Virus record (IMG/VR): IMGVR_UViG_3300007513_001216
Coordinates: 1-21,023 of that record
Direction: 5' to 3' (one strand)
Length of the DNA stretch: 21,023 nucleotides
Origin: a virus
Position numbers and translations under genes: made by a program. Shown one piece after another: positions 849 through 20,813 of the stretch. Each line of letters starts with the position of its first letter. Within the stretch, counting starts at the first letter, position 1. The notes below the pieces were generated by a model. That model ran no database searches and was not told the origin of the DNA. It saw nothing but the letters and a program-made list of their open reading frames with translations.

Positions 849-1443
849 TGTAACATCAATTAATGCTTTTATTACACCCATATTTACATCAGTAATAGAG
901 GGTATGACCGAAGATAATAATATAGAAGCAGAATTAAAAGATAACATTATAGAAGATCCTTTAGATGCCTTTGCTACACAACAAACACCGGCAGATTTGT
1001 ATATTGAACCATTATGTGAAGCTATTACAACATTAGTACATGAAATACTGGTACGAAGTTATAGATATGCTTCATATGGTATAGAGATAACATCTATGTG
1101 GGGCAATGTACAGAGACATGGTAACTATTGTTTTAAACATACTCATGCTAATAGTATTTTTAGTGGGGTATTTTATCTCAATGAAGATATTAATTTTCCT
1201 CCTGTACAATTTCATCGTCCATCAGAAAGTAGTTTTGATATGATAATAGATGAGGATAACGAATTTAATAGAGGTAAAGTTTTTTTGTATCCTAAGAGAG
1301 ATATGTTAGTACTTTTTCCAAGTTGGCTAGAACATGATGTTCCGGTAAATACTTCTGGTAAGGATAGATTATCAATAGCGTTCAATGTTATGTGTCGTGG
1401 TAGATTTGGTCAAGAGAATAGTAGACAAGAGGTTATTATATGA
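832..1443 (+). CDS. 2OG-Fe(II) oxygenase, TIGR02466-like (copy 1)
   Basis: Putative 2-oxoglutarate/Fe(II)-dependent dioxygenase of 203 aa. Seen: KHTHANSIFSGVFYL (H103 and H105, metal-binding region), then FPSWLEHDVPV with the distal histidine H168, then R179 in DRLSIAFNV where the family binds 2-oxoglutarate. This is the TIGR02466-type jelly-roll pattern common in marine T4-like phages. No ATG fits the N-terminus. The TTG at 832 has GGAG about 10 nt upstream and overlaps gp55 by 17 nt. The next in-frame ATG (904) would drop 24 residues. It is clearly paralogous to the oxygenase at 3474. It is followed by a radical SAM gene with a 4-nt overlap, so the two are probably co-translated. Substrate unknown: protein side chain, nucleic acid base or small molecule are all possible. 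Confidence 0.82.
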   Translation: MATEINVTSINAFITPIFTSVIEGMTEDNNIEAELKDNIIEDPLDAFATQQTPADLYIEPLCEAITTLVHEILVRSYRYASYGIEITSMWGNVQRHGNYCFKHTHANSIFSGVFYLNEDINFPPVQFHRPSESSFDMIIDEDNEFNRGKVFLYPKRDMLVLFPSWLEHDVPVNTSGKDRLSIAFNVMCRGRFGQENSRQEVII

Positions 1444-3481: not shown

Positions 3482-4061
3482 GTTACAAGAACATCGCTTA
3501 TTTCCTACTTTAATTTTTTCAACACATATAGAAAATTTTAAAGATATTAATATTTCTATTTTAAAAAAATTATCTAAAGCTGAAAGAATAGAAAAGGTAT
3601 ACGGCGAACAAACATTTAATATAAAAGATTGGGAAGAAATGCAACCATTTAAGGATCAAGTAGATTCTTGTTTGGGGCAGATACAATCTCATTTAGGATA
3701 TATTGTAGACCATTCTTTAGAATCTATGTGGATACAAAGTTACAGTAAACCACATATGTTAGAAAAACATACACACCCTAATAGTTGGTATAGTGGGGTT
3801 TATTATTTAAGAGCTGACGATGAAGCTGGTCCTATAGTTTTTCACGACCCTAGACCAGATGTTGGTGTTGTAAGTTATTATAAAGATAGAGAAGAAGAAA
3901 AAGTATCTAATAAAATAGAATTTAAACCAGAGCCTGGTTTATTAATATTATTTCCAAGTTGGTGTATGCATAGTGTATTAGTAGGCTCTGGTGCTAGAGT
4001 AAGTATTGCTTTTAACTATCAGAAATCTATGGTAAATGAAAATGAGTTAACCGTTATATGA
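3474..4061 (+). CDS. 2OG-Fe(II) oxygenase, TIGR02466-like (copy 2)
   Basis: A second 2-oxoglutarate/Fe(II) dioxygenase, 195 aa from this start. Seen: KHTHPNSWYSGVYYL (H99, H101), VFHDPRPD, FPSWCMHSV (distal H166) and R175 in ARVSIAFNY. It has the same architecture and nearly the same motifs as the gene at 832, so the two probably arose by duplication, although the rest has diverged. The ATG at 3474 was chosen because AGAGG lies 9 nt upstream. An in-frame ATG at 3468 is only 3 nt from that site. It overlaps the end of gp47 by 8 nt and the start of gp46 by 4 nt, so its product is made together with the recombination nuclease. Substrate unknown. Confidence 0.82.
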   Translation: MIELQEHRLFPTLIFSTHIENFKDINISILKKLSKAERIEKVYGEQTFNIKDWEEMQPFKDQVDSCLGQIQSHLGYIVDHSLESMWIQSYSKPHMLEKHTHPNSWYSGVYYLRADDEAGPIVFHDPRPDVGVVSYYKDREEEKVSNKIEFKPEPGLLILFPSWCMHSVLVGSGARVSIAFNYQKSMVNENELTVI

Positions 4062-6903: not shown

Positions 6904-7257
6904 ATGAAAGAAATTTTAGATGTAAAACCAGATTTTACAAAAATTACAGATATGGACCTTATTGGGTTATTATCTTATTGTGAAGATTGGCTTCCAGAAA
7001 GGGTTTATGATACAGCATATTCACAAGTATTTCCAGAACAACAGGTTCTGGAAGTAAAAAAACCCTTTGGAGAATGGTTAAAGGGACCTAAAAAATTGCC
7101 GGATATAGTTAGATTTGAATTAGTTAGAGCCGCTTATATTAATTTTGAAGCGGGTAAAATGAAAAATTTAAAGATTGCTTATCTTACTACAAAATTTTTT
7201 AAAAATTCTTTAGTTTGGTCGTTTATAGGTTTTATTTTTTGGTGGTGGTTTTTATGA
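6904..7257 (+). CDS. Hypothetical protein with C-terminal membrane segment
   Basis: 117-aa protein that I do not recognise. The soluble part (1-95) is mixed charge. The last 15 or so residues (VWSFIGFIFWWWFL) are strongly hydrophobic with three consecutive tryptophans and no following charge, which fits a tail anchor in the inner membrane. No SD is evident: the bases before the ATG are the terminator tail and CGATTATATT. The same 12 bases GATTATATTATG span the start of the gene at 7903. It overlaps the following 2OG oxygenase by 4 nt, so the two are likely translationally coupled. No function can be assigned. Confidence 0.7.
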   Translation: MKEILDVKPDFTKITDMDLIGLLSYCEDWLPERVYDTAYSQVFPEQQVLEVKKPFGEWLKGPKKLPDIVRFELVRAAYINFEAGKMKNLKIAYLTTKFFKNSLVWSFIGFIFWWWFL

Positions 7258-7871
7258 AAAAACAAGATTTAACTACAGGGGCTGGTAAAAAACTATATAT
7301 TTACGATGAAGTTTTTGATTATAGTACCCAATCTAAATTGGAACATTATATATGGTCATCATATTTTAAGCCTGTAGGAGAAGACCGTGGGTTTGATCGA
7401 AATACAGCTAATCATTTAACAATGATGGCTACTTATTCTAAAGAGGACCATGAAACATCACATTTTTTCGATTATCTTCCTAAAGAAATACAGGAAGAAC
7501 ATAATATAAGTTTAGATACTTATAGTCATGGCTTTGCTAATTTGGTTACACCATCAGATAGATTTCATGTGCATTCGGATAATAGTGTACCAGATCCAAA
7601 AACATATTATAAAGAAGATGAAATAGACCATAATAAGACTTTACTTTATTATCCGTCTATGAATTGGCACGTTGAATATGGTGGTGATACTTTATTTTTA
7701 GATGAAACTGGCTTAAGTGTAGAGGTGTTTTCACAATATACAAGTGGTAGAATTATTATATTTGATTGTAATATACCACACCTTATGAGACCATCGACAG
7801 CTTTGGCCCCCCATTTTAGATTCAGTTGGGTGATAAAGTTTCTAACAGATGAAAATTTTAGAAACTATTGA
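7254..7871 (+). CDS. 2OG-Fe(II) oxygenase (prolyl-4-hydroxylase-like, copy 3)
   Basis: 205-aa dioxygenase of a different subfamily from those at 832 and 3474. Seen: FHVHSDN with an H-x-D metal motif (H107, D109), LLYYPSMNWHVEYGGDTLFL typical of the core strands, then NIPHLMRP (distal H176) and R189 in HFRFSWVIKF for 2-oxoglutarate. The arrangement matches P4H-type phage oxygenases. The ATG at 7254 overlaps the upstream stop (ATGA), with GGTGG about 9 nt before it. A TTG at 7215 in the same frame would only add residues encoded by the upstream gene's membrane segment, so it was not used. The substrate is unknown. A hydroxylase of a viral or host protein is the usual guess for this subfamily. 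Confidence 0.82.
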   Translation: MKKQDLTTGAGKKLYIYDEVFDYSTQSKLEHYIWSSYFKPVGEDRGFDRNTANHLTMMATYSKEDHETSHFFDYLPKEIQEEHNISLDTYSHGFANLVTPSDRFHVHSDNSVPDPKTYYKEDEIDHNKTLLYYPSMNWHVEYGGDTLFLDETGLSVEVFSQYTSGRIIIFDCNIPHLMRPSTALAPHFRFSWVIKFLTDENFRNY

Positions 7872-8858: not shown

Positions 8859-9002
8859 ATGTGCCACAAGTGTGCTGGTTGGTGGTCCATAGCAGTAGAA
8901 AGTTTTTTACCTTTGGATAGAGAATGGTACTGTCCTTGGTGCGGTGAGAAGGAACTTTATAATGAAAGAGACATATCTATGGGTAGAGAAGTATCGCCCT
9001 AA
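8859..9002 (+). CDS. Small zinc-ribbon protein between gp45 and gp44
   Basis: 47-aa ORF with two CxxC knuckles: CHKC at residues 2-5 and CPWC at 25-28, separated by a GWWSI segment and followed by an acidic, basic-ended tail. This is a classic four-cysteine zinc ribbon, and small proteins with CxxC-GGWW-type starts occur in T4-like marine phages. The frame is open further upstream (to 8799, into gp45), but the only sensible ATG is 8859, which has a weak SD. It overlaps the start of gp44 by 41 nt, which is long for this genome and suggests translational coupling to the clamp loader. It may bind DNA, RNA polymerase or the replisome. The function is unknown. Confidence 0.65.
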   Translation: MCHKCAGWWSIAVESFLPLDREWYCPWCGEKELYNERDISMGREVSP

Positions 9003-9897
9003 AAAGATAACCGATTGTATTCTTCCTGAATCAATCAAAAATACCTTTCTAGAATTTGTCGGACAAGGAGAGATTCCTAATCTTCTCCTTGCCGGTGGTT
9101 CTGGTGTAGGTAAAACAACTGTTGCTCGAGCGTTGTGTGAGGAACTTCATTCTGATTATATCATTATAAACGGATCAGAAGAATCTGGCATTGATGTATT
9201 GAGAAACAAAATTAAAACATTTGCTTCAACTGTTTCACTTCAAGGTGGACAAAAAACAGTTATTCTTGATGAAGCAGATTATCTAAATCCATCTTCAACA
9301 CAACCTGCTCTTCGTGGGTTTATTGAGGAGTTTCATAGAAACTGTCGTTTTATTTTTACTTGTAATTATAAAAATAGAATTATAGAACCATTACATTCTC
9401 GATGCTCAGTTATCGAGTTTAAGATAAACGGCAATAAAGCAATACTTGCTTCACAGTTTATGACTCGTATTGAAGGTGTTTTGAAACAAGAAGATATTGG
9501 ATTTGAAGAAGAAGTTGTAGCAGAATTAATTATGAAACATTTTCCAGATTTTAGGAGAGTGTTGAACGAACTACAGCGCTATAGTGTTAGTGGTGTAATT
9601 GATTCTGGTATTCTTGTAAACATTGCTGAAGTCAACATGAAAGAGTTGATGAATCATTTGAAGAAAAAAGAATTTACTCAAGTTCGCAAGTGGGTTGTGG
9701 ACAATATAGATAATGATCCTGTGAAAGTGTTCCGTAGAATATACGAAACTTTATATCAGTATATGAAACCTAATAGTATTCCCGCAGCAGTATTAGTATT
9801 GGGTAAATATCAATATTATTCAGCTTTTGTTGCTGATGCAGAAGTTAATCTATTGGCGTGTTTAACTGAAATCATGTCCCAATGTGAGTTTAAATGA
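8962..9897 (+). CDS. 44: T4 gp44-like clamp-loader ATPase subunit
   Basis: AAA+ ATPase of 311 aa (T4 gp44 is 319) that opens gp45 and loads it on primed DNA. Seen: WVEKYRPKKITDCILPE at the N-terminus, Walker A GGSGVGKTT (45-53), Walker B VILDEADYL (DEAD 103-106), sensor I at FTCN (132-135) and SRC (146-148) carrying the arginine finger, followed by the helical collar. ATG 8962 is preferred over the in-frame GTG at 8944 because GAAGGA lies about 9 nt upstream and the protein then starts like its relatives. In T4 the next gene is 62. Here a DruA-like gene is inserted between them. Confidence 0.95.
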   Translation: MKETYLWVEKYRPKKITDCILPESIKNTFLEFVGQGEIPNLLLAGGSGVGKTTVARALCEELHSDYIIINGSEESGIDVLRNKIKTFASTVSLQGGQKTVILDEADYLNPSSTQPALRGFIEEFHRNCRFIFTCNYKNRIIEPLHSRCSVIEFKINGNKAILASQFMTRIEGVLKQEDIGFEEEVVAELIMKHFPDFRRVLNELQRYSVSGVIDSGILVNIAEVNMKELMNHLKKKEFTQVRKWVVDNIDNDPVKVFRRIYETLYQYMKPNSIPAAVLVLGKYQYYSAFVADAEVNLLACLTEIMSQCEFK

Positions 9898-11135
9898 GAG
9901 AAGATTGGGACGATAGATTAACGGAAGAATATGAATATTGGTTATCAAATAATCCTGTAGATAAAGTTGATTGTCCTAGTGATGATGAACTACGGGCTTT
10001 ATTACTCGACAACCTAGAGTTTGTTCGTTCCATGTCTATAGAGGAATATACCCTCTATCAGAAATGGAATGAAATTCATACAAAATATCCTACTAAAGAA
10101 ACCTCTACACTGTTTGGTGTGGAGAATGTGATGATTGATGCGAAAAAGAAGCACATTACAGATAAAGCAAAGTCTATGGTGTGGCCTGGCGGAGATTATA
10201 CAAAATTACAACCAGAGTTAATTCTTACAGAGCATAATCGTTGGTTGACAGACCAATGGACTGCTGTAAGAACATTTTGTCATACACAAAGAAACAATAA
10301 TAATATTGGTAGAAATTTATTTTATCTTGTAGTAGATAAACCAACTGGACAATATCTAGGTGTAATTTGTATATCGTCAGATTTTATAGACTTAACTCCT
10401 AGAGATAAGTTTGTAGGTTGGACTAGAGAACAACGTAATGAGGGAATGTTAGGACATACAGCAATTGGGTCTAGTATATTACCCACACAACCTTTGGGAT
10501 TTAATTATGTTGGTGGTAAGTTACTTGCTTTGTTATGTTTATCCGATACAGTTCAGAATGATTGGAAGAAAAGATATAAACAAATATTGGTAGGTATGAC
10601 TACAACATCTTTATATGGATCATTTTCTCAGTATCAGAATTTGAAGTATTGGAATAAAAGAGGTAAAACAACAGGCAAAGTTGTATTTGAACCAAACATA
10701 CAGAATTTAAGAGCGTGTAGGAGGTGGACTCATAAGAATCATCCCGAGAAATATTGGGAGTGGTGGCATGCTATGAATGATAAAGGCAATAAGTATAAAA
10801 GAGACCATAAGTTTAGAATGTTGACATTTATATATTCTCAATTAGGTATTAAGAATGTAGAATCAATGCACCAACGTGGTATATACTTTTCCCATCTATA
10901 CGAAAATACAGCAGAATTTCTCCGACAAGAGATAACAGAGTCCATGTTAATTAAAAGATTTCCAACATCTACAGAGCATCTTGTAGATATATGGAAAGAA
11001 AAGTATGCTAGCAAGAGAATTAAATCACTTACAGAAAGTAATAGATTAAATAATAATATACTGTTTTATGATGATTTAATTTATATGAATTGGGAAGAAA
11101 CAAAACAAAAATATTTAAGTGATGTAGGACGATGA
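9894..11135 (+). CDS. DruA/DUF4338-like protein, copy 1 (between gp44 and gp62)
   Basis: 413-aa protein. The central part (about 112-262) follows the layout of the DUF4338 (Druantia protein DruA) family as I know it: NLFYLVVDKPTGQYLGVI, then LTPRDKFVGWTREQRN, then ILPTQPLGFNYVGGKLLALL, then RYKQILVGMTTTSLYG and a final YWNKRGKTTGK. The flanking regions (1-110 and 263-413) are not recognised. It is homologous to the protein at 16205 across the core and also near the C-terminus (ASKRIKSLTESNRL versus ASKRYDSIKEDGRL). The strand order and the closing Tyr-x-x-x-x-x-x-Trp/Tyr-Gly segments are reminiscent of GNAT-fold proteins such as phage Mu Mom, which is inference. It overlaps gp44 and gp62 by 4 nt each, so it is made with the clamp loader. 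DruA's own molecular activity is not established. Confidence 0.6.
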   Translation: MREDWDDRLTEEYEYWLSNNPVDKVDCPSDDELRALLLDNLEFVRSMSIEEYTLYQKWNEIHTKYPTKETSTLFGVENVMIDAKKKHITDKAKSMVWPGGDYTKLQPELILTEHNRWLTDQWTAVRTFCHTQRNNNNIGRNLFYLVVDKPTGQYLGVICISSDFIDLTPRDKFVGWTREQRNEGMLGHTAIGSSILPTQPLGFNYVGGKLLALLCLSDTVQNDWKKRYKQILVGMTTTSLYGSFSQYQNLKYWNKRGKTTGKVVFEPNIQNLRACRRWTHKNHPEKYWEWWHAMNDKGNKYKRDHKFRMLTFIYSQLGIKNVESMHQRGIYFSHLYENTAEFLRQEITESMLIKRFPTSTEHLVDIWKEKYASKRIKSLTESNRLNNNILFYDDLIYMNWEETKQKYLSDVGR

Positions 11136-11545
11136 AGAAAAACGAACCACCTTATCAATTAAAACATTATTTGAATGCTATAAACCATGAAAAAGTAGAT
11201 TTGATGGATGGTGAAGATGAGTTTTGGGAAAAGAAATATCCTGCTTTTATAGTAAATAAGGCATTAGGTTCTTTTGTTGATACTATACTATATGTGAATG
11301 AAATGAACAAGATGCACCACCTCGACAAGCGTCTCCAATTTCATTTTTTTCTAAATAGTATAGGTCGTAAAAAAAGATTTGCTAAATGGTTACGATCAAG
11401 CAAGATCGAAAATCTTGACACAATCAAAGAGTATTATGGATATAATAATGAAAAGGCCAGACAGGCTCTTGAGATACTAAATGATGAGCAAATTGAAGAA
11501 ATAAAAATAATAATAAATCGAGGTGGAAAACATGGAAGAACTTGA
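11132..11545 (+). CDS. 62: T4 gp62-like clamp-loader small subunit
   Basis: Non-ATPase subunit that completes the gp44(4)/gp62(1) clamp loader. At 137 aa it is shorter than T4 gp62 (187) but similar to marine relatives. Recognisable stretches: PYQLKHYLNAINHEKVDLM, FIVNKALGSFVDTI, NEMNKMHHLDKRLQFHFFLN, RKKRFAKWLR and YYGYNNEKARQALEIL, all characteristic of the family. SD AGGA lies 3-4 nt before the ATG. The gene overlaps RegA by 14 nt. In T4, 62 is translated by coupling to 44. Here coupling would have to run through the inserted DruA-like gene. Confidence 0.9.
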   Translation: MKKNEPPYQLKHYLNAINHEKVDLMDGEDEFWEKKYPAFIVNKALGSFVDTILYVNEMNKMHHLDKRLQFHFFLNSIGRKKRFAKWLRSSKIENLDTIKEYYGYNNEKARQALEILNDEQIEEIKIIINRGGKHGRT

Positions 11546-11936
11546 TTGGGACCCAGGCTTAATGCTTGAGGTCACATTATCAGAAGCTGATGATTTCCTT
11601 AAAATCCGAGAAACCTTATCACGCATTGGTGTTGCTTCTAGAAAAGAAAGAATTTTATATCAATCTTGTCACATTCTACATAAGCAGGGCCGATATTTTA
11701 TCGTACATTTTAAAGAATTGTTTGCGTTAGATGGTAAGCCAACCAATTTGACTCAAAATGATATAGAACGAAGAAATACAATAGCTGGTTTATTGGAAGA
11801 TTGGGGACTTGTGAATATTGAGGGGTTGTCAGAACCTAGAGCACCATTATCACAAATAAAGATATTATCTTTTAAAGAAAAAGATGAATGGACTCTAGAA
11901 ACAAAATATAATATAGGAAAGAAACGAGTGGAATAA
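11532..11936 (+). CDS. regA: RegA translational repressor
   Basis: RNA-binding repressor that blocks ribosome access at the start sites of many early phage mRNAs, including clamp, clamp-loader and its own. Conserved stretches are unmistakable: DDFLKIRETLSRIGVASRK, ILYQSCHILHKQGRYFIVHF, RRNTIAGLLEDWGLVNI and ILSFKEKDEWTLETKYNIG. The start is uncertain. ATG 11532 has GAGGTGG upstream (134 aa), while ATG 11562 gives MLEVTL, which aligns directly with the T4 start MIEITL but has a poor SD. If 11532 is used, the protein has a 10-residue N-terminal extension relative to T4 (122 aa). The position between 62 and 43 is as in T4. Confidence 0.95.
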   Translation: MEELDWDPGLMLEVTLSEADDFLKIRETLSRIGVASRKERILYQSCHILHKQGRYFIVHFKELFALDGKPTNLTQNDIERRNTIAGLLEDWGLVNIEGLSEPRAPLSQIKILSFKEKDEWTLETKYNIGKKRVE

Positions 11937-11937
11937 T

Positions 11938-12234
11938 ATGATTAAATTGATAAGAATGAAGTCCGGTGAAGATGTTATCGGCGATGTGACAGAAATAGAT
12001 ACAGGATATATAGTAGAAAGGCCAGCGGTACTCATGCCTATGCCAGCTTCTCAAGGTAGAGAAATGTCAATGGGCATGGTGCCTTGGCAACCATTTAGTA
12101 AAAGTACAAAATTTTCTATTCCAGGAGATTGGGTAGTTACAACTTCAGACCCAGCAGACGATATTGAAAATGGATATAGAACAAATTTTGGTTCAGGCAT
12201 ACAAGTAGCAACAAATAAATTACTCGTAGACTAA
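11938..12234 (+). CDS. Small conserved phage protein with KSGEDVIGDV motif (possibly Sm-like)
   Basis: 98-aa protein starting MIKLIRMKSGEDVIGDVTEI, followed by YIVERPAVLMPMP and a VPWQPFSKSTKFSIP segment. Small proteins with this KLxSGEDVI start are recurrent in T4-like marine phages next to the replication genes, but their function is not known to me. The opening resembles the Sm1 motif (a strand, then G-x-x-V-x-G-x-V), so a small beta-barrel RNA-binding fold is a reasonable guess and no more. An SD-like GAGTGGA sits 6 nt before the ATG. The gap to RegA is 1 nt, so co-expression with that RNA-binding repressor is near certain. Confidence 0.65.
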   Translation: MIKLIRMKSGEDVIGDVTEIDTGYIVERPAVLMPMPASQGREMSMGMVPWQPFSKSTKFSIPGDWVVTTSDPADDIENGYRTNFGSGIQVATNKLLVD

Positions 12235-12237
12235 ATA
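12230..12237 (+). promoter_or_regulatory. Possible late promoter element (ACTAAATA), 5 nt before the RimK-RimB start
   Basis: ACTAAATA matches 6 of 8 positions of the T4 late element TATAAATA. T4 late elements occupy about -13 to -6, so the 5-nt gap here puts +1 on the A of ATG 12243, predicting a leaderless late mRNA. The same octamer with the same 5-nt gap precedes the ATG at 19722. The only SD-like AGGA (12237-12240) is just 2 nt from the ATG. Speculative. Confidence 0.3.
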
Positions 12238-12242
12238 GGACT

Positions 12243-13685
12243 ATGAGTAAATCATTTTCTATGATTCGCAAAGCCAGAGGCACTTTGGTCGAGCAGAAAA
12301 AAGAAGAACAACCCAAAGACGAAAAGTATCGGTTGTTGGTTATTAGTAATAAGCCTGACAACAATCCTTATTTCCATACTGTTCAAAGACTTTTGGATGA
12401 AGCAAAAAAACTTGGCATTCCAGCTTATGTATTGATGGCGGAAATAGCAAATATTGCTGATGGCCAAGTTTGGAACTCTGGAGATGAAAAAAATAAATTT
12501 AATATTTCATCTGATGATACTATTACTATTGTTCGTGGTTCTGTTGCTCGCCGAGACGCATATTTAGACTTAATTTCCCAATTAGAAAAACTAGGTATAG
12601 TAGTTGTAAATAGTAGACAAACAGTACAAATATGTGCTGACAAATATTGGTCATCTTTGCGTTTTGCTGATAATAATATTCCAACTCCAAAAACAGCTTT
12701 AGTACAAAGTGAAGAAACTTTACAAGCATCATTAGATATTATTGGAGAAGAATACCCAATGATATTGAAAACTCTAAAAGGATCAAAAGGTGTAGGAGTG
12801 ATTTTTATTGAATCTAAACGCCAATTAGTTTCTTTGATACAATTACTTTGGAAAGAAGATGATTCTACAGAAATACTTTTACAATCATATATTAAATCAG
12901 ATTTTGATGTAAGAGCATTAGTTTTGAATGGCAAAATTCTGACCGCAATGCGCAGAGATGTTTTAGAGGGAGATTTTAGAAGTAATTATTCACAAGGCGC
13001 TAAAGTTAAAGAATATAAGTTAAGTTCCGAAGAAATGGAAATATGTATTAATGCTGATAAAAGTGTTAATGGCATATACACCGGAGTAGATTTTATTAAG
13101 AATGGTAACGATATTTTTGTATTAGAGGTAAACAGTTCACCTGGCACTGAAGGTATTGAAGAAGCAACTGGTAGAAATTTAATTAAGGAAATATTAGTTC
13201 ATTTTAAAGATAGAAATAATTGGAGATGGCAAGCTACAGAAATTGGGAGATTTGAATTAGTTACTTTAGAAGGTGTTGGTAAAATTGTTGCAAATTTTGA
13301 TACTGGTAATAGTGCAAGATGTATTATTCATGCTGACAAATATGATGTAAAAAACAATATAGTGACATGGGAAATACAAGGGAAAAAATTTAAAAATAAA
13401 CTTATTAAAATGACAAAGTGGGAACGGGGTGCTCTTGCCGCTGAGGTTATTGAAAGACCGCTCATATTATTAGATGTTACATTTGATGGTTCTATATATA
13501 AAGATGTTAAATTTGCTATAGATGATAGAAGTGAAAAGAGAACAAAATGTTTAATGAACCAAGATTTTATGAAACGAAGTAAAGTGATGGTCAATCCATC
13601 TAGATCATTTGTGGCCACATTTGCACCTAACCATGGTCTAAATTCTGATGGAACCTTTAAGAAGAACGCATTTGACTTATTTTGA
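12243..13685 (+). CDS. RimK-type ATP-grasp ligase fused to RimB-like aspartic protease
   Basis: 480-aa two-domain protein. Residues about 28-325 are a RimK-like ATP-grasp ligase: YRLLVISNK start, YPMILKTLKGSKGVGV (171-186, ATP-binding lysine K176 and glycine loop), DVRALVLNGKILTAMRR (222-238) and FVLEVNSSPGTEGIE (292-306) with metal ligands E295 and N297. RimK adds glutamates to the C-terminus of ribosomal protein S6. Residues about 335-457 match the RimB/ATP-dependent zinc-protease family (retropepsin-like): EGVGKIVANFDTGNSARCIIH with the catalytic-type DTG (353-355), then FAIDDRSEKRTKCLMNQDF and VNPSRSF (450-456). The N-terminal 27 residues are charged and variable. Writer and trimmer on one chain is the notable feature. 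The -35 of the gp43 promoter lies in its last codons. Domain assignment is strong; the S6 target is inferred. Confidence 0.85.
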   Translation: MSKSFSMIRKARGTLVEQKKEEQPKDEKYRLLVISNKPDNNPYFHTVQRLLDEAKKLGIPAYVLMAEIANIADGQVWNSGDEKNKFNISSDDTITIVRGSVARRDAYLDLISQLEKLGIVVVNSRQTVQICADKYWSSLRFADNNIPTPKTALVQSEETLQASLDIIGEEYPMILKTLKGSKGVGVIFIESKRQLVSLIQLLWKEDDSTEILLQSYIKSDFDVRALVLNGKILTAMRRDVLEGDFRSNYSQGAKVKEYKLSSEEMEICINADKSVNGIYTGVDFIKNGNDIFVLEVNSSPGTEGIEEATGRNLIKEILVHFKDRNNWRWQATEIGRFELVTLEGVGKIVANFDTGNSARCIIHADKYDVKNNIVTWEIQGKKFKNKLIKMTKWERGALAAEVIERPLILLDVTFDGSIYKDVKFAIDDRSEKRTKCLMNQDFMKRSKVMVNPSRSFVATFAPNHGLNSDGTFKKNAFDLF

Positions 13686-13700
13686 TTTTTATGATATAAT
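13672..13700 (+). promoter_or_regulatory. Strong sigma70-type promoter immediately before gp43 (leaderless)
   Basis: TTGACT (13672-13677, 5 of 6), a 17-nt spacer, and a perfect TATAAT (13695-13700). Only six bases (GGTCCC) separate the -10 from ATG 13707, so the expected +1 is the A of the start codon or within 1-2 nt of it. No Shine-Dalgarno sequence exists in the 25 nt before the ATG. Confidence 0.75.
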
Positions 13701-13706
13701 GGTCCC

Positions 13707-16208
13707 ATGAGTGACTTTTATATTAATGTAATGCAACGGGGTCCTAACCTCCTTGTTCGTGAATTCAAAGACGGTAAACGAGTAAAGCAAAAGATAAAAT
13801 ATGCGCCTACTCTTTACGTTCCTGTAGATAAAAAAACAGAATATACAACTTTAACAGGACAGTATGTAGCTCCTTATAAACTAGATGGCATATATGAGGC
13901 CCGGGCGTTTCTGGAGCAGTACGATGAACAACCTGAATTAGTTTATGGAATGGAGCGTTATCCATTTACTTGGATTGCTGATAATTATCCTGGTATAATT
14001 GATTGGGATATTAAGAAACTTAATATTTTAACTATAGATATTGAAGTTCAATGTGAGAATGGTTTTCCAGACCCACGTGCTGCTGATGAAGAATTATTGT
14101 GTATAACTGTAAAAAATCACTCTAATAAACAGATTTTAGTTTGGGGTATGCAAGAATATGTTGTGCATAATTCCGACGTTCAGTATGTTGAGTGTTATAA
14201 TGAAAAAGAACTGCTGAGAAAGTTTATAGAATTCTGGGAGTATTATGACCCAGATATCATTACAGGTTGGAATACAAAGTTCTTTGATATTCCTTATCTG
14301 TGTAATCGCATAACAAAAATTCTAGGTGAAGATGAGATGAATAGACTATCTCCTTGGAAAGTTGTGCATCCACAACGAACATTTATTGCTAATAGAGAAT
14401 TACAAACGTATGATATTTTAGGAGTATCATCATTAGACTATATAGACTTGTATAGAAAATATACCTATACCAGCCAAGAGTCATATACACTTAATCATAT
14501 TGCATATGTTGAGTTGGGTGAAGCTAAACATGAAAACCCACATGAAACATTTAGAGATTGGTATACAAATGATTATCAATCTTTTGTTGATTATAATATT
14601 CAAGACGTTGAGCTAGTAGATAGATTGGAAGAAAAGATGAAATTGATAGAATTACATCTTACTATGGCTTATGAGGCGAAGATAAATCCACATGATGTGC
14701 ATTCTCAAGTTCGTATGTGGGATGTAATTATCTATAATTATCTTAAAGAGCATAATGTAGTTGTGCCAATGAATTCATCACAAAGAAAAGATGCAAAGTA
14801 TGAAGGTGCTTATGTAAAAGATCCTATTGTGGGATTACATAAGTGGGTAATGTCTTTTGATTTGAATAGTCTGTATCCACATTTGATTATGCAGTATAAT
14901 ATTTCTACAGAAACTATAGCTAAAGAAGGTAATGGTGAAGTTAATGTAGACAAGATGTTAAATAAAGAGGTAGATATTCCTGATGATGGATTTACAGTGA
15001 CTCCAAATGGAGCACGTTTTATAAAAGATAGACAAGGATTTCTTCCCGCTTTAATGGAGAAATTTTATACAGACCGTGTTAAGTTTAAACAATGGACTTT
15101 AGATGCTAAAAATAATTATCAAAAATCAAAAGATTCAAAGTATTTGAATGAGATATCTAAATATAATAACATACAGATGGCTCGTAAGATTGCTTTAAAT
15201 AGTGCTTATGGTGCTATTGGTAATCAGTATTTTAGATATTATGATACGAGATTGGCTACTGCTATAACAACAGCGGGTCAGTTATCTATTCGTTGGATTG
15301 AAAATGCTGTAAATGGTTATTTGAATAAAATATTGGAAACAGAAAATGAAGATTACATCATTGCATCAGATACAGACTCAATATACGTTTCTTTTGACGA
15401 ATTGGTACATAAATCTTTTAATGGTAGAGATAACGTATCAAAGGAAAGAATTGTATCCTTTCTCGATACGGTGGCTAAAGAAAAAATTGAGCCGTTTATT
15501 GATAAATCTTATCGAGACCTTGCCGAATATGTAAAAGCATATGAGCAAAGAATGGAGATGGCTAGAGAAGTCATTGCCGACAAAGGTATCTGGACTGCCA
15601 AGAAAAGATATATTTTAAATGTCTATGACAGTGAAGGTGTACGATATAATGAACCTCAATTAAAAATAATGGGCATTGAGGCTGTAAAGTCATCAACGCC
15701 AGAACCTTGTCGTGATAAAATTAGAGAAGCTATAAAGCTAATACTTAATGAAGATGAAAAATCTCTAAATGAGTTTATTCAAGAATTCAGAAAAGAATTT
15801 ATGAATATGCCTCCAGAAATGATTGCTTATCCTAGGTCATGTAAAGGTTTAAAAAAGTGGGGAGACTCCACAACTGTTTATAAAAAGAGTACACCCATGC
15901 ACGTCAAGGGTGCTTTGATGTATAATTTCTTTTTGAAAAAACATAAGGTTACTCACAAGTATCCTAATATTCAAGAAGGCGATAAAATAAAATTTGTAGA
16001 ATTACGAACTCCAAATATAATTCAAACAAATGTTGTATCGTTTATGACAAGATTACCTAGAGAGTTTGATTTGAATTCAGCAATAAATTATGATGTTATG
16101 TTTGACAAAAGTTTTGTCGAACCGTTGACTTTTATTCTTGACCAAATACAATGGCAAGTAGATAGAAGTTATGGCACACAACGAACACTAGAAGCGTTAT
16201 TTGGATGA
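13707..16208 (+). CDS. 43: T4 gp43-like family B DNA polymerase
   Basis: Replicative polymerase with proofreading, 833 aa (T4 898; marine relatives about 830). Exonuclease motifs: ExoI TIDIEV (D111, E113), ExoII GWNTKFFDIPYL (D194) and ExoIII YNIQD (296-300, D300). Linker KYEGAYV (364-370). Polymerase motifs: A FDLNSLYPHL (D385), B KIALNSAYG (494-502) and C SDTDSIY (554-560, DTD 555-557). All catalytic residues are intact. The C-terminus ends RTLEALFG, a short hydrophobic peptide of the sort that docks gp43 on the gp45 clamp. The start is fixed by the promoter: ATG 13707 follows the -10 by six bases and has no SD, so the mRNA made here would be leaderless. It overlaps the next gene by 4 nt. 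Confidence 0.97.
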   Translation: MSDFYINVMQRGPNLLVREFKDGKRVKQKIKYAPTLYVPVDKKTEYTTLTGQYVAPYKLDGIYEARAFLEQYDEQPELVYGMERYPFTWIADNYPGIIDWDIKKLNILTIDIEVQCENGFPDPRAADEELLCITVKNHSNKQILVWGMQEYVVHNSDVQYVECYNEKELLRKFIEFWEYYDPDIITGWNTKFFDIPYLCNRITKILGEDEMNRLSPWKVVHPQRTFIANRELQTYDILGVSSLDYIDLYRKYTYTSQESYTLNHIAYVELGEAKHENPHETFRDWYTNDYQSFVDYNIQDVELVDRLEEKMKLIELHLTMAYEAKINPHDVHSQVRMWDVIIYNYLKEHNVVVPMNSSQRKDAKYEGAYVKDPIVGLHKWVMSFDLNSLYPHLIMQYNISTETIAKEGNGEVNVDKMLNKEVDIPDDGFTVTPNGARFIKDRQGFLPALMEKFYTDRVKFKQWTLDAKNNYQKSKDSKYLNEISKYNNIQMARKIALNSAYGAIGNQYFRYYDTRLATAITTAGQLSIRWIENAVNGYLNKILETENEDYIIASDTDSIYVSFDELVHKSFNGRDNVSKERIVSFLDTVAKEKIEPFIDKSYRDLAEYVKAYEQRMEMAREVIADKGIWTAKKRYILNVYDSEGVRYNEPQLKIMGIEAVKSSTPEPCRDKIREAIKLILNEDEKSLNEFIQEFRKEFMNMPPEMIAYPRSCKGLKKWGDSTTVYKKSTPMHVKGALMYNFFLKKHKVTHKYPNIQEGDKIKFVELRTPNIIQTNVVSFMTRLPREFDLNSAINYDVMFDKSFVEPLTFILDQIQWQVDRSYGTQRTLEALFG
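16125..16152 (+). promoter_or_regulatory. Possible internal promoter near the 3' end of gp43
   Basis: TTGACT (16125-16130), a 16-nt spacer, TACAAT (16147-16152, 5 of 6). It would start RNA near 16159 and feed the DruA-like/glycosyltransferase block from 16205. It is inside coding sequence of an AT-rich genome, so chance is a real alternative. Confidence 0.3.
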
Positions 16209-17353
16209 TATTAAGTGAAAAAGAAACATATTGGGCAGCTGATAAACTAGTAAATTTTTTCAACAGTTTTAATCGTATAGATGAATACTTTAGAAAAAGA
16301 AAAATAGAGCGAATCAAAAAATTCCCAACCCCACTTTTCGGTATGGGTCCTGAAGATGATTTATTTCAAGCTTGGGACATGCACCCCGAAGATATGGAAT
16401 TTGAAGTAGTTACAAGAACTAGAGAAGTTTTTGAGAATCTATTGGAGATGACTGCTAGCTTTACTCCAGATGATCCTCCCGCACGTGTTACTAAAATCTG
16501 TGTACAAGAAAAGAACACTGGAAAGATTTGTGGGTTTATTAAATTAGCATCACCTCTTATTAATGCCAAGCCAAGAAATGATTGGTTGGGTCGTCCATTG
16601 AATGGACAAGATAAAGCAGAGATGAGCAAATTCAATGATTCTACTATCATGGGATTTGTTATAGTACCAGCACAGCCATTTGGGTTTAATTATCTAGGCG
16701 GTAAGTTGATGGCTGCTATTTGTTGTTCACATGAAATTAGACGAAGAATGAATAAAAAGTATGGTGGTCCATTTTGTTTGTTCGAGACTACCTCGCTTTA
16801 TGGAAATATAAAAGGTATGTCCATGTATGATGGTATGAGACCTTTTCTAAAATATAGAGGCGATACTTTATCAAAATTGTTTTTAAATTTGGACGATGAT
16901 GTATATTTTGAAATACGAGATTGGTTTTATGAAAAGAATGGTGGTAAACCTTTAATACCTATGACTACTGAAGCAGGAACTCCTATTACAGGTCATAAGT
17001 TACGAACTCAAAGTAAAATCATAAGTATAATTACTAATTCACTTAAACATCATAACCAAGAAGCATATCAAAAATTTATGGAGTTTAAAAAGAGCGCAGG
17101 CGAAATAACTACACAGAAACGATTTTATAATTCTACATATGGGTTTTCTAATAGTCGAGAGTTTTTATTAGGAGAAACAGAAACGCTTATTAAGAGTGAT
17201 ACCTATGACAAATACGAGTTAGATAATATAGTAAAGTGGTGGAAGAAAAAAGCAAGTAAACGATATGACTCCATAAAAGAAGATGGAAGATTACGGAGAG
17301 AAATTGAAGTTTGGAAACGTGATAACATAGATACATTGGATATTATACGATGA
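16205..17353 (+). CDS. DruA/DUF4338-like protein, copy 2 (after gp43)
   Basis: 382-aa paralogue of the protein at 9894. Shared core (about 97-225): VTKICVQEKNTGKICGFIK, KPRNDWLGRP, FVIVPAQPFGFNYLGGKLMA (152-171), CLFETTSLYGNIKGMS (191-206), and FLKYRGDTLSK where copy 1 has YWNKRGKTTGK. The C-terminal KKKASKRYDSIKEDGRLRRE also matches copy 1. It differs by lacking the long N-terminal region and by carrying an insertion after LGRP (NGQDKAEMSKFNDS), so the two have diverged and may have separate tasks. As in copy 1, the layout follows DruA of the Druantia defence systems as I know that family, whose activity is unestablished. It overlaps gp43 by 4 nt and the glycosyltransferase by 4 nt. A DNA-related role is inferred from both neighbours. 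Confidence 0.58.
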   Translation: MILSEKETYWAADKLVNFFNSFNRIDEYFRKRKIERIKKFPTPLFGMGPEDDLFQAWDMHPEDMEFEVVTRTREVFENLLEMTASFTPDDPPARVTKICVQEKNTGKICGFIKLASPLINAKPRNDWLGRPLNGQDKAEMSKFNDSTIMGFVIVPAQPFGFNYLGGKLMAAICCSHEIRRRMNKKYGGPFCLFETTSLYGNIKGMSMYDGMRPFLKYRGDTLSKLFLNLDDDVYFEIRDWFYEKNGGKPLIPMTTEAGTPITGHKLRTQSKIISIITNSLKHHNQEAYQKFMEFKKSAGEITTQKRFYNSTYGFSNSREFLLGETETLIKSDTYDKYELDNIVKWWKKKASKRYDSIKEDGRLRREIEVWKRDNIDTLDIIR

Positions 17354-18333
17354 AGATAGTTTGTGCAAGAATTAGAAGCAATGTGACTTACACAGGTCCT
17401 TTAGAAACTGTCCTTGATAGTTTCTTTGAGTTGTATGTACGTTGGATGAAGGACAACCCGCAATACGAATACTCAACATACAATCTCAGTTTTGATAAGA
17501 ATGTTAAACCAAAACGAGATCCAGAAGTATTCAAAGATGCTGATGTTGTTGTGATACCATCCGACAGTGAGTTTAGATATCACGGAGAATTGCAAGTAGA
17601 CCCAAGAGATTTAGAAACATCAAATAACTTTGTAAAGGAGTTTACCCCATACATGGAAGGTAAGAAAGTTATTATCTGGAGGTCAGACCGTGGTGATACA
17701 GAACAATTGTATAGAGAAAACACTTTCAAAGGGGTAACTCTTGGTGACTTTCATACAATAGATGAGATTGATTTCCCTGCCAACATACACGGCATGAAGT
17801 ATCATTTTATCCAGACACTAAAGAACCCATTGTCTATGATGATGGACACACCTAAAGATAGAGACTTTGCCTATTGGGGTAGAATGAAACCGTCTGAGAA
17901 AAATCAACGAGAGAAAACTATTCGGGCACTGTACAGAGACCCAGACATATCGACTGTGTTGGTTGGTGGTTTTCCTTCCGGTGTAAAACGTGATGCGAAG
18001 TGGATCAAAGAATGGAAGGTGTTGTACCCAATGATAGAACGTGCCAAGTGTACACTGTGTTTTAATTGGTTAGACCCGACAGCAACAACATCAAGATATC
18101 CAGAAGCAATGTCTGTGGGTCTAGTTCCTTTTGTGTGGGGTGACTATGATATCAACAACACATATAATATTGATAACTGGCAACGAGTGAGTACCTTTGA
18201 GGACTTACGAGAAAAAATATTATCTTTAGATGAAACACAACTGAATGATATCAGAAACAATTATACAAAGATATTGCCAAGCCAAGATGAATACTATGAG
18301 ATGTTTAGAAAAATGATGGATGAATGTTTATGA
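17350..18333 (+). CDS. Putative GT-B-type glycosyltransferase
   Basis: 327-aa protein. The N-terminal half starts MKIVCARIRSN and contains DADVVVIPSDSE and KKVIIWRSDRGD, alternating strands and loops of a Rossmann-like domain. The C-terminal half begins FAYWGRMKPSEKNQREKT, then STVLVGGFPSG, RAKCTLCFNW and RYPEAMSVGLVPFVWGD (249-265). The last is the E-A-x-x-x-G-x-x-P segment that binds the nucleotide-sugar donor in GT-B enzymes. The whole is shorter than a typical GT-B enzyme (about 350-400) but comparable to phage DNA glucosyltransferases. Specific similarity to T4 alpha- or beta-GT cannot be claimed. Third positions look less AT-rich than in the neighbours upstream. It overlaps the DruA-like gene by 4 nt and the methyltransferase by 10 nt. 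Acceptor unknown: DNA base or glycan. Confidence 0.6.
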   Translation: MKIVCARIRSNVTYTGPLETVLDSFFELYVRWMKDNPQYEYSTYNLSFDKNVKPKRDPEVFKDADVVVIPSDSEFRYHGELQVDPRDLETSNNFVKEFTPYMEGKKVIIWRSDRGDTEQLYRENTFKGVTLGDFHTIDEIDFPANIHGMKYHFIQTLKNPLSMMMDTPKDRDFAYWGRMKPSEKNQREKTIRALYRDPDISTVLVGGFPSGVKRDAKWIKEWKVLYPMIERAKCTLCFNWLDPTATTSRYPEAMSVGLVPFVWGDYDINNTYNIDNWQRVSTFEDLREKILSLDETQLNDIRNNYTKILPSQDEYYEMFRKMMDECL

Positions 18334-18911
18334 GCACAGCAAAGAAATTAAATAGAGATAAGGGATTTTGGCAAGGCGAAACTCCAGGACATCTCAACAG
18401 TAAAGAACTACAGAAATCCTTAATAGAATTTTGTCAAAATGAAAAAGTAAAGTCGGTAGTAGATTTTGGTTGTGGTGACGCATCATACATTAAAAAAATT
18501 TATAATAGTTGTGAAGATTTAGAATATCTTAATGCGTTTGATGGTAACCCAAATGTGAAAAAGATTACTGATGGGTTTGCTGAACAACAAGATTTATCAA
18601 TACCATTTGATTTAGGTCGTAAGTATGATTTGGTTTTGTCCCTTGAGGTTGCCGAACATATACCTAAACAACACGAATCTGTTTATACAAATAATTTAGT
18701 GAATCATGTTGATAAACATTTGATTATTAGTTGGGCTACAGTAGGACAAAAGGGAATAGGTCATGTTAATTGCCAAAATAATGATTACGTTATTGACTTG
18801 TTTTCTAATTTTGGTTTGTCATATCAAAAAGAAACATCTCTACGGTTTAGAGATTCTATTGGTAGAAGTTGTAAATGGTTCAAAAACACAATAATGTATT
18901 TTAAAAAATGA
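18324..18911 (+). CDS. Class I SAM-dependent methyltransferase
   Basis: 195-aa Rossmann-fold methyltransferase. Seen: motif I VVDFGCGDASY (45-55), FDGNP (72-76) at the acidic SAM-ribose strand, DLSIPFD (90-96), motif IV-like DLVLSLEVAEHIP (102-114), then HLIISWA and GQKGIGHVNCQNNDYVI (141-157). The last segment is typical of small methyltransferases found in sugar and glycan clusters rather than of DNA C5 or N6 methylases, which would carry PC or DPPY motifs that are absent here. Two in-frame starts are possible (18324 and 18330). The context between two glycosyltransferases suggests it methylates a sugar or a related adduct (inference). Confidence 0.85.
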   Translation: MFMSTAKKLNRDKGFWQGETPGHLNSKELQKSLIEFCQNEKVKSVVDFGCGDASYIKKIYNSCEDLEYLNAFDGNPNVKKITDGFAEQQDLSIPFDLGRKYDLVLSLEVAEHIPKQHESVYTNNLVNHVDKHLIISWATVGQKGIGHVNCQNNDYVIDLFSNFGLSYQKETSLRFRDSIGRSCKWFKNTIMYFKK

Positions 18912-19717
18912 AGATATATATTCCAACATTAGGTAGAGTTGATAATCAAATCACTTTTGACAATTTGCCAGATAAACATAAAGAGCAAGTTGTATTTGTT
19001 GTGCAGGAACACGAACGACCAAAACATAAAAGAGATGTAGAATACATGGTTGTTGGTGACAACATAGGACTTTCAGAAACACGCCGACAGATTTTTTATA
19101 CAGTTGGTAAGAGTAGATTTTCTTTGTATGATGATGACTTGGTATTCTATAGAAGAAACATAAAATACACAACCGGTTCATCTGATATGGAAGGTTCTAA
19201 AAGAAAGATGACCGAATCTGACTTTGATGAAATGTATGATACTTTCAATGGTTGGTTGGATGATGGGTACATACAATGCGGACATAGAGAAACATCATTA
19301 CCACCACTAGGAAAACTGCACCATGACAACGTGGGTATGTTTTCTGGTTTCACAATGAATGGTGAATTGATATCAAAGTTTATTGATGATGTGGATTGGA
19401 TTTACACCTATGTTGGACAAGATAGTATGTGGCAGATAGAGTTTCTTACTAGAGGATATAGGATAAGAATGTCTGATATCTTTACACAAAAATCTGAGTG
19501 GTGGCAAGAAGGTGGTTGTTCTAATTACCGTGATGCTGATATGTATAATAATGAACATAGAAAACTAGTCACAAAATATCCAGAGTTTGTTAAAGAATCT
19601 GGATCAGTAACAAGAAAGAATATAGGAGAGATTATTAAGTTGAAGTATCGTTGGAGAGATGCTTACAAATATGGTCAGAGAAATAGTTTAGAAGGTTTTT
19701 TTGAAGAAACTAAATAG
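18908..19717 (+). CDS. TAGT-like (TET-associated) GT-A glycosyltransferase
   Basis: 269-aa glycosyltransferase-like protein whose landmarks match the TAGT family described next to phage TET/JBP base hydroxylases: IYIPTLGR (3-10), VVFVVQEHE (28-36), NIGLSETRRQIF (52-63), SLYDDDLVFYRR (72-83, with the acidic D-D-D metal/nucleotide motif), then TYVGQDSMWQIEFLTRGY and WWQEGGCSNYRD near the C-terminal third. Known TAGT proteins transfer sugars to hydroxylated bases in phage DNA. Here no TET/JBP-type oxygenase is visible within the window, only 2OG oxygenases of other subfamilies. It overlaps the methyltransferase by 4 nt and closes the modification block. The alternative is a glycan glycosyltransferase. 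Family call moderately strong; substrate unproven. Confidence 0.65.
   Translation: MKIYIPTLGRVDNQITFDNLPDKHKEQVVFVVQEHERPKHKRDVEYMVVGDNIGLSETRRQIFYTVGKSRFSLYDDDLVFYRRNIKYTTGSSDMEGSKRKMTESDFDEMYDTFNGWLDDGYIQCGHRETSLPPLGKLHHDNVGMFSGFTMNGELISKFIDDVDWIYTYVGQDSMWQIEFLTRGYRIRMSDIFTQKSEWWQEGGCSNYRDADMYNNEHRKLVTKYPEFVKESGSVTRKNIGEIIKLKYRWRDAYKYGQRNSLEGFFEETK
19709..19716 (+). promoter_or_regulatory. Possible late promoter element (ACTAAATA), 5 nt before the protease start
   Basis: The same octamer and the same 5-nt gap to the ATG as at 12230. The predicted +1 coincides with A of ATG 19722, and no SD precedes that ATG. A late promoter would suit a protease acting at the end of infection. It overlaps the TAGT stop codon in a different frame register from the first copy, so shared coding does not explain the match. 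Confidence 0.33.
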
Positions 19718-19721
19718 TATA

Positions 19722-20813
19722 ATGGGGAAAAAAATATATTTAACTTTAATAACATTAGTTTGTTTAATTGTAACTTATAATGTTAAGGCTGAAATTGATA
19801 CAGAAATTGTTAAACACGCTAGAGATGCCACAGTTTTAATAGCCGGCAGCCAGGGAGGTATGGGTTCTGGCATAATTTTAAATGAAGATGGATTAGTATT
19901 AACAAATTATCATGTAATTCATAGCGCCGAAGAATTAAGAGTATGGTTTTATGATGTACATAATGATAATTTTTATACCGCTGAAATTATAGGTATAGAT
20001 CCAATTGCTGATTTGGCACTAATACAAATGAAAGTGCCAGATTATTTACTACCGTTAAAGTTTTTAACAATGGAAACTGAAACTTGGGAGGTTGGTGAAG
20101 AAGTATTTGCTATTGGACATCCAATGGGAATACAATGGACTGTTAGTTTAGGACATTTAGCAAATTTAGAAAGAACAGGAAGAATAACACCGTATGTAAA
20201 TACAATACAACATTCAGCTGAAATACATAAAGGCAATTCTGGTGGACCTTTAATCAATAGACACGGTAGGATTGTGGGTGTAAATACTTATTTATTATTA
20301 CCCAATAAACAATGGAGTGGAATAGCGTATGCCGTTAAAAGTGATATAGTTAAATGGTCAATTAATCAAATGTTAGAATTGGGTATGACAAAATATCCAG
20401 CCTTTAAATTAGATTTAAGAAGTTTAAGTCCTAGTGGTTATGAGGCTCTTAAAGAAATAGATCCTGATAATAGAATACCTAAAGACCTTTTTGGTTTGTT
20501 AGTGTTTAGTTTAGATGATGATTATGCTAAATCACAGGGTATAAGGCGTTGGGATATAGTTGTTGCTATAGATGGTCAGCCAGTAAATAATTTATTGGAT
20601 GTTAGAGAAATTTTAATGCCCAATTATAAACCTGGTCAAATTGTAGATTTAATTTATATAAGAGAGGGACATTTTAGGAGAACTGATTATGTTTTGTCTG
20701 AAATAGAATTTGATTTTGTAGAATATTATGGCGATAGTGCTGCTGAACGACAACTAAATGAAGAAGAGGATGAAGATGATGGTCCTTCAGCATTTGAAGA
20801 AGAGGATGAATGA
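19722..20813 (+). CDS. Secreted HtrA/DegP-like trypsin-fold serine protease with PDZ domain
   Basis: 363-aa protein. The N-terminus MGKKIYLTLITLVCLIVTYNVKA is a typical Sec signal peptide (basic n-region, hydrophobic core, A-x-A-like end VKA|E at 23/24), so the enzyme should act in the periplasm. Catalytic triad: H64 in LTNYHVI, D97 in IADLALI, S173 in GNSGGPL. An HtrA-type glycine-rich GGMGSGIIL precedes them. A single PDZ domain (about 243-335) includes FGLLVFSLDDDYAKSQGI and RRWDIVVAIDGQPVNN. The C-terminus is a highly acidic tail (EEDEDDGP then EEEDE). The ATG at 19722 is chosen over an in-frame TTG at 19701 because it gives the clean signal peptide. HtrA enzymes degrade or chaperone misfolded envelope proteins. 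A role in lysis, capsid processing or envelope stress is open. Confidence 0.9.
   Translation: MGKKIYLTLITLVCLIVTYNVKAEIDTEIVKHARDATVLIAGSQGGMGSGIILNEDGLVLTNYHVIHSAEELRVWFYDVHNDNFYTAEIIGIDPIADLALIQMKVPDYLLPLKFLTMETETWEVGEEVFAIGHPMGIQWTVSLGHLANLERTGRITPYVNTIQHSAEIHKGNSGGPLINRHGRIVGVNTYLLLPNKQWSGIAYAVKSDIVKWSINQMLELGMTKYPAFKLDLRSLSPSGYEALKEIDPDNRIPKDLFGLLVFSLDDDYAKSQGIRRWDIVVAIDGQPVNNLLDVREILMPNYKPGQIVDLIYIREGHFRRTDYVLSEIEFDFVEYYGDSAAERQLNEEEDEDDGPSAFEEEDE

What the first reader, a model, noticed from the sequence alone, without database searches (positions are those of the whole stretch)
9894..17353. Two divergent DruA/DUF4338-like paralogues embedded in a phage replisome operon
The proteins at 9894-11135 and 16205-17353 share a core (QPLGFNYVGGKLLA versus QPFGFNYLGGKLMA; TTSLYG in both) and a C-terminal ASKR motif. 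Both follow the layout of DruA, a component of the Druantia anti-phage systems, as I know the family. One sits inside the clamp-loader pair and the other directly after DNA polymerase. A phage carrying two copies of a defence-family fold in its own replication unit suggests either counter-defence (a decoy or dominant-negative subunit) or an ancestral DNA-modifying or DNA-sensing role shared by both. The core strand order and closing aromatic segments also recall GNAT-type DNA modifiers such as Mu Mom.
Basis: partly seen in the sequence, partly recalled or inferred. Interest (0 to 1): 0.8.

Follow-up and report, generated by a model that had tools for sequence, protein, structure and literature searches.

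The report
Two DruA-like acyltransferase-fold proteins in phage
A marine T4-like virus of bacteria carries, threaded through its DNA-copying genes, two distantly related proteins of a family known mainly from a bacterial anti-virus system; their predicted shape and gene neighbours suggest that they chemically mark the virus's own DNA rather than act as defence parts or decoys.

Summary
Genes A (9894-11135) and B (16205-17353) are related (29% identity over 273 aa, E=1e-20) and both pass the curated PF14236 (DruA/DUF4338) cut-off (72.9 and 35.8 bits; cut-off 27). A lies between clamp-loader genes 44 and 62 and B directly after polymerase gene 43, each joined by 4-bp ATGA overlaps. Confident AlphaFold models (mean pLDDT 93 and 90) are GNAT folds. 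Copy A's best match among 350,542 PDB chains is the Mu Mom DNA modifier, but profile comparison with Mom is at chance level.

A and B are two old subfamilies under purifying selection, widespread in cyanophages, pelagiphages and freshwater relatives. Seven of 14 long A-bearing contigs also carry B. B travels with a glycosyltransferase-like gene, and where B is absent its slot after gene 43 holds a DNA methyltransferase in four unrelated cases.

Most likely they are stand-alone predicted DNA-modifying acyltransferases (about 50%); the decoy idea has little support. DruA-like cyanophage proteins were already reported (PMC12774648), and DUF4338 was already called a GNAT (PMC10853773). New here are the two-subfamily replisome arrangement, B's partner gene and the methyltransferase swaps. 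No activity has been shown.

The parts
9894..11135 (+). Copy A: DruA/DUF4338-family protein, 413 aa, predicted GNAT fold, between gp44 and gp62
   Evidence: PF14236 72.9 bits; model pLDDT 92.7; best PDB match Mu Mom 8bv8
10488..10529 (+). Copy A loop/helix QPLGFNYVGGKLLA (residues 199-212) right after predicted strand 189-197; candidate acyl-CoA-binding loop
   Evidence: Q199 P200 G202 G207 G208 K209 invariant in 60 aligned sequences; position in model; role inferred
10602..10619 (+). Copy A TTSLYG (residues 237-242)
   Evidence: S239, L240 invariant, the rest at least 90% in 60 sequences
16205..17353 (+). Copy B: DruA/DUF4338-family protein, 382 aa, phrog_19197, predicted GNAT fold, directly after gp43
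   Evidence: PF14236 35.8 bits; phrog_19197 E=8e-132; model pLDDT 90.0; GNAT matches
16673..16714 (+). Copy B QPFGFNYLGGKLMA (residues 157-170)
   Evidence: Q157 P158 G160 N162 G165 G166 K167 invariant in 58 sequences
16787..16804 (+). Copy B TTSLYG (residues 195-200)
   Evidence: S197, L198 invariant, the rest at least 90% in 58 sequences
8944..9897 (+). gp44-like clamp-loader large subunit, overlaps A by 4 bp
   Evidence: phrog_168 3.6e-125
11132..11545 (+). gp62-like clamp-loader small subunit, overlaps A by 4 bp
   Evidence: phrog_225 1.3e-41, Phage_clamp_A
13707..16208 (+). gp43-like DNA polymerase, overlaps B by 4 bp
   Evidence: phrog_262, 1081 bits
17350..18333 (+). Partner gene W17350: unnamed 327-aa protein that travels with B; probably a GT-B glycosyltransferase
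   Evidence: B within 4 kb in 63 of 80 loci found through this gene alone; 31 of 34 dereplicated untruncated loci; no Pfam match for the window protein, one relative matches Glyco_trans_1_2 at E=0.047
18324..18911 (+). Class I methyltransferase next to the B - W17350 pair
   Evidence: Methyltransf_23, 28.3 bits, cut-off 27
18908..19717 (+). TET-associated glycosyltransferase (TAGT) downstream of B
   Evidence: PF20691 34.6 bits (cut-off 27.5); phrog_842 beta-glucosyl-HMC-alpha-glucosyltransferase 9e-19

Best explanation
A and B are stand-alone, phage-encoded members of the DruA/DUF4338 branch of the GNAT superfamily. Their most likely job is to attach a small group from an acyl-CoA-type donor to bases of replicating phage DNA, so that progeny DNA resists host nucleases. 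B works as part of a movable modification cassette (B plus a glycosyltransferase-like partner, methyltransferase and TAGT glycosyltransferase). A is a second, older-diverged enzyme that could have a different target base or sequence. Shown: homology, fold prediction, conservation of the core, position, partnership. Inferred: catalysis, DNA as substrate, chemistry, protective purpose.
For: Family. Fold: AlphaFold pLDDT 92.7 and 90.0; A's top PDB match is the Mu DNA modifier Mom (E 1.3e-3, prob 1.00, TM 0.55 by target length) and the other leading hits are almost all GNATs; B matches GNATs. Core residues kept in both copies and in cellular DruA; dN/dS 0.05-0.10 (A) and 0.03-0.16 (B). Both proteins are basic (pI 8.8 and 9.0) among mostly neutral or acidic neighbours. 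B's partner gene stays with it in different genome places, on the other strand or in reversed order. DNA methyltransferases of three families take B's slot after gp43 in four unrelated cases without B: MT-A70 in Mosig, an HhaI-type C5 methylase in Melnitz-1, PF00145 in L343/L345-L347 and PF01555 in L381. MTase-like genes within 2.5 kb follow gp43 in 4/43 anchors versus 8/338 for other replication-gene anchors.
Against: No biochemical data exist for any DruA that I know of. Profile-profile comparison with Mom is no better than shuffled controls; B does not list Mom among its top 50 PDB hits; no PDB hit reaches E below 0.001. The gp43-uvsX interval also holds unrelated genes, so methyltransferase replacement is suggestive, not proof, and numbers are small. 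In L188 a methyltransferase and B occur together. Cyanophages carry B without the W17350 partner.
Confidence: 0.5

Rival explanations
1. They are acyltransferases, but the substrate is not DNA: a replisome protein, a host protein, a tRNA, or a glycan precursor (B next to glycosyltransferases).
For: Most GNATs act on proteins, small molecules or tRNA; B's neighbours include glycosyltransferases; HAT-type and other protein or tRNA acetyltransferases are among the fold hits.
Against: Repeated placement with replication genes and DNA methyltransferases; nearest solved fold of A is a DNA modifier; cellular relatives are defence-associated.
Confidence: 0.2
2. Counter-defence decoys: they imitate host DruA and poison Druantia-like complexes.
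For: Some Pelagibacterales carry 658-703-aa DruA proteins in what look like defence cassettes.
Against: Only 4 of 247 Pelagibacterales species have one. Phage copies are far from cellular DruA, retain the whole core, are under strong purifying selection and have two deep subfamilies, unlike a fast-evolving mimic. The host of the window phage is unknown and cyanobacteria were not surveyed.
Confidence: 0.08
3. Phage-borne defence against competing phages or host DNA: the DruA-like protein marks self DNA and a partner nuclease attacks unmarked DNA.
For: Some B clusters hold nuclease-like genes, e.g. an endonuclease (phrog_3978) beside a DNA methyltransferase in L159.
Against: No nuclease is consistently linked to A or B; the window's A and B are flanked by replication and modification genes only.
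Confidence: 0.1
4. Non-catalytic DNA-binding or structural accessory of the replisome that uses the DruA fold.
For: Basic pI and position within the clamp-loader and polymerase genes with ATGA overlaps.
Against: Positions shift between phages (after PDF, gp44, gp43, gp41, UvsY-sigma) and many T4-like phages lack both (Melnitz-1; 29-31 matching records versus 2306 records with RegA), so it is not a core replisome part.
Confidence: 0.1

Closest known systems
DruA (PF14236, DUF4338) of Druantia type I anti-phage systems
   Same: Significant profile match of both copies; shared core with G-G-K-L, T/S-S-x-x-G, S-x-Y motifs
   Different: Phage-encoded, in replication operons, no DruB-E beside them; far from cellular DruA in the tree
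DruA-like proteins of Synechococcus phages reported with Phold (PMC12774648), e.g. S-PRM1
   Same: The S-PRM1 member belongs to the B subfamily and sits between gp44 and gp62
   Different: That report gives six cyanophage proteins and structural similarity only; no subfamily A, no two-copy arrangement, no partner gene, no replacement by methyltransferases
Mom of phage Mu (PF25680; PDB 8bv8)
   Same: GNAT fold; top PDB match of copy A; phage-encoded with a suspected DNA-modifying role
   Different: No PF25680 match and no significant profile similarity; DruA proteins are larger
DUF4338 GNAT domains fused to DndF (PMC10853773)
   Same: Independent assignment of the domain to the GNAT superfamily
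   Different: There a fused accessory of a phosphorothioate-linked system; here stand-alone phage proteins

Membership tests
DruA / DUF4338 (PF14236) | Curated profile score above the gathering cut-off | tested here: met
   72.9 (A) and 35.8 (B) bits, cut-off 27; 58 of 58 relatives match at the E-value limit used; a profile of the phage proteins recovers cellular DruA at 4e-23 to 9e-18
DruA / DUF4338 (PF14236) | Conserved core residues shared with cellular DruA | tested here: met
   G, R, P, GGK, S, Y and G positions aligned across phage and cellular members
Druantia type I system | druA encoded next to druB-druE | tested here: not met
   Neighbours of A and B are gp44, gp62, gp43 and W17350. 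Distant genes of the whole phage were not scanned with PADLOC
GNAT superfamily | GNAT fold | tested here: met
   Models pLDDT 92.7 and 90.0; leading PDB hits are mostly GNATs, best E-values 1e-3 to 1e-2
GNAT superfamily | Acyl-CoA binding and acyl transfer | not testable with these tools
   Candidate loop QPxGxNYxGGKL follows a strand as in GNAT motif A, but is longer than the usual Q/RxxGxG/A (sequence)
Mom family (PF25680) | Profile match to Mom | tested here: not met
   No PF25680 hit for A or B at E up to 1; hhalign E 0.02-0.28, close to the range of shuffled controls
Mom family (PF25680) | Fold like Mom | tested here: inconclusive
   Best PDB match for A, but Mom is not in the top 50 for B

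The most novel reading that the evidence does not exclude
DruA-family proteins are DNA-base acyltransferases. Marine T4-like phages run two of them, with different specificities, coupled to their replication genes, and combine B with a glycosyltransferase to build a new kind of hypermodified base. In Druantia, DruA would then mark or sense such modification.
Probability: 0.25. Interest if true: 0.85.

Novelty: new variant of a known kind. Interest (0 to 1): 0.55.

Why it matters
The biochemistry of DruA was not described in any paper I could find. These phages offer natural test sets: cultured genomes with both copies (HTVC008M), A only (Mosig), B only (S-PRM1, S-SSM7) and neither (Melnitz-1), so mass spectrometry of virion DNA could directly test whether the family modifies bases. 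It would also show that a 'defence' family name can mislead annotation of phage genes.

Tried and rejected
Profile-profile link to Mom: tried with 8-sequence and 93-sequence Mom alignments, with reversed and block-shuffled controls; not significant (one search was run in a wrong global mode and is disregarded). PDB sequence search: nothing. Identity of W17350: no PDB, PHROG or NCBIfam match and only one weak Pfam hit in a relative; the GT-B call rests on the SRYPEAMSVGLVPF-type motif and is an inference. Recent duplication of A into B: rejected, B forms one clade (100/99) and a cellular ParB-DruA fusion groups on the A side (91/85, long branches). Literature search for the Mom structure paper found nothing held.

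Full report
OBSERVATION. The two ORFs are real and at the stated places. They are homologous to each other (29% identity over 273 aa, E=1e-20) and both exceed the curated Pfam cut-off for DruA/DUF4338 (72.9 and 35.8 bits; cut-off 27); PADLOC DruA models also match (3e-15, 2.4e-5). The window is a 21-kb virus record of a T4-like marine phage. gp44, gp62, RegA and gp43 were identified by profile; the sigma factor, gp47, gp46 and gp45 are named by similarity to annotated HTVC008M genes. A is joined to gp44 and gp62, and B to gp43 and the next gene (W17350), by 4-bp ATGA overlaps, so both probably belong to the replication transcription unit.

DISTRIBUTION. Among 50,697 phage records A-type matches occur in 29 and B-type in 31, all cyanophages, pelagiphages or unnamed marine viruses, against 2306 records with a RegA match, so the genes are accessory. 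In most cyanophages examined B lies between gp44 and gp62; S-B68 is an exception, with B near gp47/gp46. HTVC008M has B after gp43 and an A copy after a deformylase-like gene (named); Mosig has only A. A census of fetched loci (not dereplicated; it includes the window and two re-fetched pieces of it) puts A directly after peptide deformylase in 77 of 114; the gp44-gp62 position of A was seen only in the window and close relatives (L001, L002, L004). B follows gp43 in 37 and gp44 in 26. Of 14 long A-bearing contigs, 7 hold a second copy, typed as B and lying just after gp41; 16 B-bearing contigs have only B. L184 has B and A in tandem.

PHYLOGENY AND SELECTION. B is one clade (100/99). A is separate, with a cellular ParB-DruA fusion protein on the A side (91/85; long branches, so tentative); cellular DruA is far from both. 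The core (R, GGK, S, Y) is retained across A, B and cellular DruA. dN/dS is about 0.05-0.10 for A and 0.03-0.16 for B; gp44 0.04, gp43 0.14 in comparable pairs (some pairs were saturated at synonymous sites and gave no ratio). Neither copy looks like a decaying or fast-evolving decoy.

STRUCTURE. AlphaFold2 models are confident (A pLDDT 92.7, pTM 0.88; B 90.0, 0.85). Foldseek against the PDB gives GNATs for both. For A the first two of 350,542 chains are Mu Mom (8bv8, E 1.3e-3 and 4.1e-3, probability 1.00, TM 0.55 and 0.50 by target length). B's best hits are malonyl-CoA decarboxylase, tandem GNATs and acetyltransferases, and Mom is not in the top 50. No hit is below 0.001, and whole-query TM is low (0.30 or less). 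Profile-profile comparison to Mom is at chance level. So: GNAT fold well supported, Mom the nearest solved relative for A, but common descent with Mom beyond the superfamily not shown. PMC10853773 already calls DUF4338 a GNAT domain, and PMC12774648 already reports DruA-like proteins in six Synechococcus phages. One cyanophage record is even annotated 'methylcarbamoylase mom'.

NEIGHBOURHOOD OF B. Downstream of B the window carries W17350 (327 aa, unnamed), a class I methyltransferase and a TET-associated glycosyltransferase. W17350 stays with B in different places: after gp43, in the UvsY-sigma-gp47 region, on the strand opposite to its surroundings, and in reversed order. Searching viral contigs with W17350 alone recovers B within 4 kb in 63 of 80 loci; after dereplication, 31 of 34 untruncated loci, all on the same strand. 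HTVC008M's W17350 homologue (39% identity) lies two genes before its A copy. Where B is missing, the slot after gp43 holds DNA methyltransferases: C5 type in L343/L345-L347 (read in L345; the others have the same gene spacing), N6/N4 type in L381, MT-A70 in Mosig and an HhaI-type methylase in Melnitz-1, a complete relative that lacks A and B (absent). MTase-like motifs within 2.5 kb follow gp43 in 4 of 43 dereplicated anchors and other replication genes in 8 of 338. This is the best functional hint, with small numbers, and in L188 and L223 an MT-A70-type gene and B occur together.

HOST SIDE. 5 of 247 Pelagibacterales species genomes contain PF14236: one B-like 371-aa protein, probably phage-derived, and four proteins in 662-703-aa frames. 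In the two loci examined (L292, L293) the protein is 658 aa, matches PADLOC DruA1, and sits beside a gene with an MzaB-like match (a GHKL ATPase in L292); L292 also lies next to hisG. Host targets for a decoy are therefore rare in this order; cyanobacteria were not surveyed.

MECHANISM. Shown: family, predicted fold, conservation, operon position, partnership of B. Inferred: CoA-type donor bound by the QPxGxNYxGGKL loop, DNA base as acceptor, protection of progeny DNA. Confidence in DNA modification about 0.5.

VERDICT. A real, accessory, two-subfamily DruA/GNAT arrangement in marine T4-like phages; partly anticipated by earlier reports; function untested but directly testable with cultured phages.

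Noticed in passing
L292:7688-11578 and L293:5300-9114: SAR11-order genomes carry a 658-aa DruA1 beside a gene with an MzaB-like match (GHKL ATPase in L292), in L292 next to hisG: a possible DruA defence cassette without druB-E.
   Followed up: partly
L296:1154-2914 (also L215, L216): Proteobacterial single-cell genome with a ParB_N - DruA fusion protein; a ParB-like gene also occurs near B (L171), and one beside Mom in a Microbacterium phage record.
   Followed up: partly
BFVD hits: Giant viruses (Faunusvirus, Yasminevirus, Dasosvirus) encode proteins structurally matching copy A (E 3e-20 to 2e-10).
   Followed up: no
L159:5447-6918: Phage contig with an endonuclease-like gene (phrog_3978) overlapping an N6/N4 DNA methyltransferase, between W17350 and TAGT: looks like a restriction-modification pair.
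   Followed up: partly
window 12243-13685: RimK-like ATP-grasp ligase with a C-terminal weak match to an ATP-dependent zinc protease domain, between RegA and gp43; recurs in relatives.
   Followed up: no
window 1440-2426: Radical-SAM-like protein (CxxxCxxC in CNFNCGYC; Pfam 27.4 bits, just under the cut-off of 29.5) between sigma factor and gp47.
   Followed up: no
window 832-1443, 3468-4061, 7215-7871: Three ORFs that look like 2OG-Fe(II) oxygenases by sequence; not tested with a profile here.
   Followed up: no
window 19701-20813: DegP-like secreted serine protease gene (by sequence) at the end of the modification gene run.
   Followed up: no
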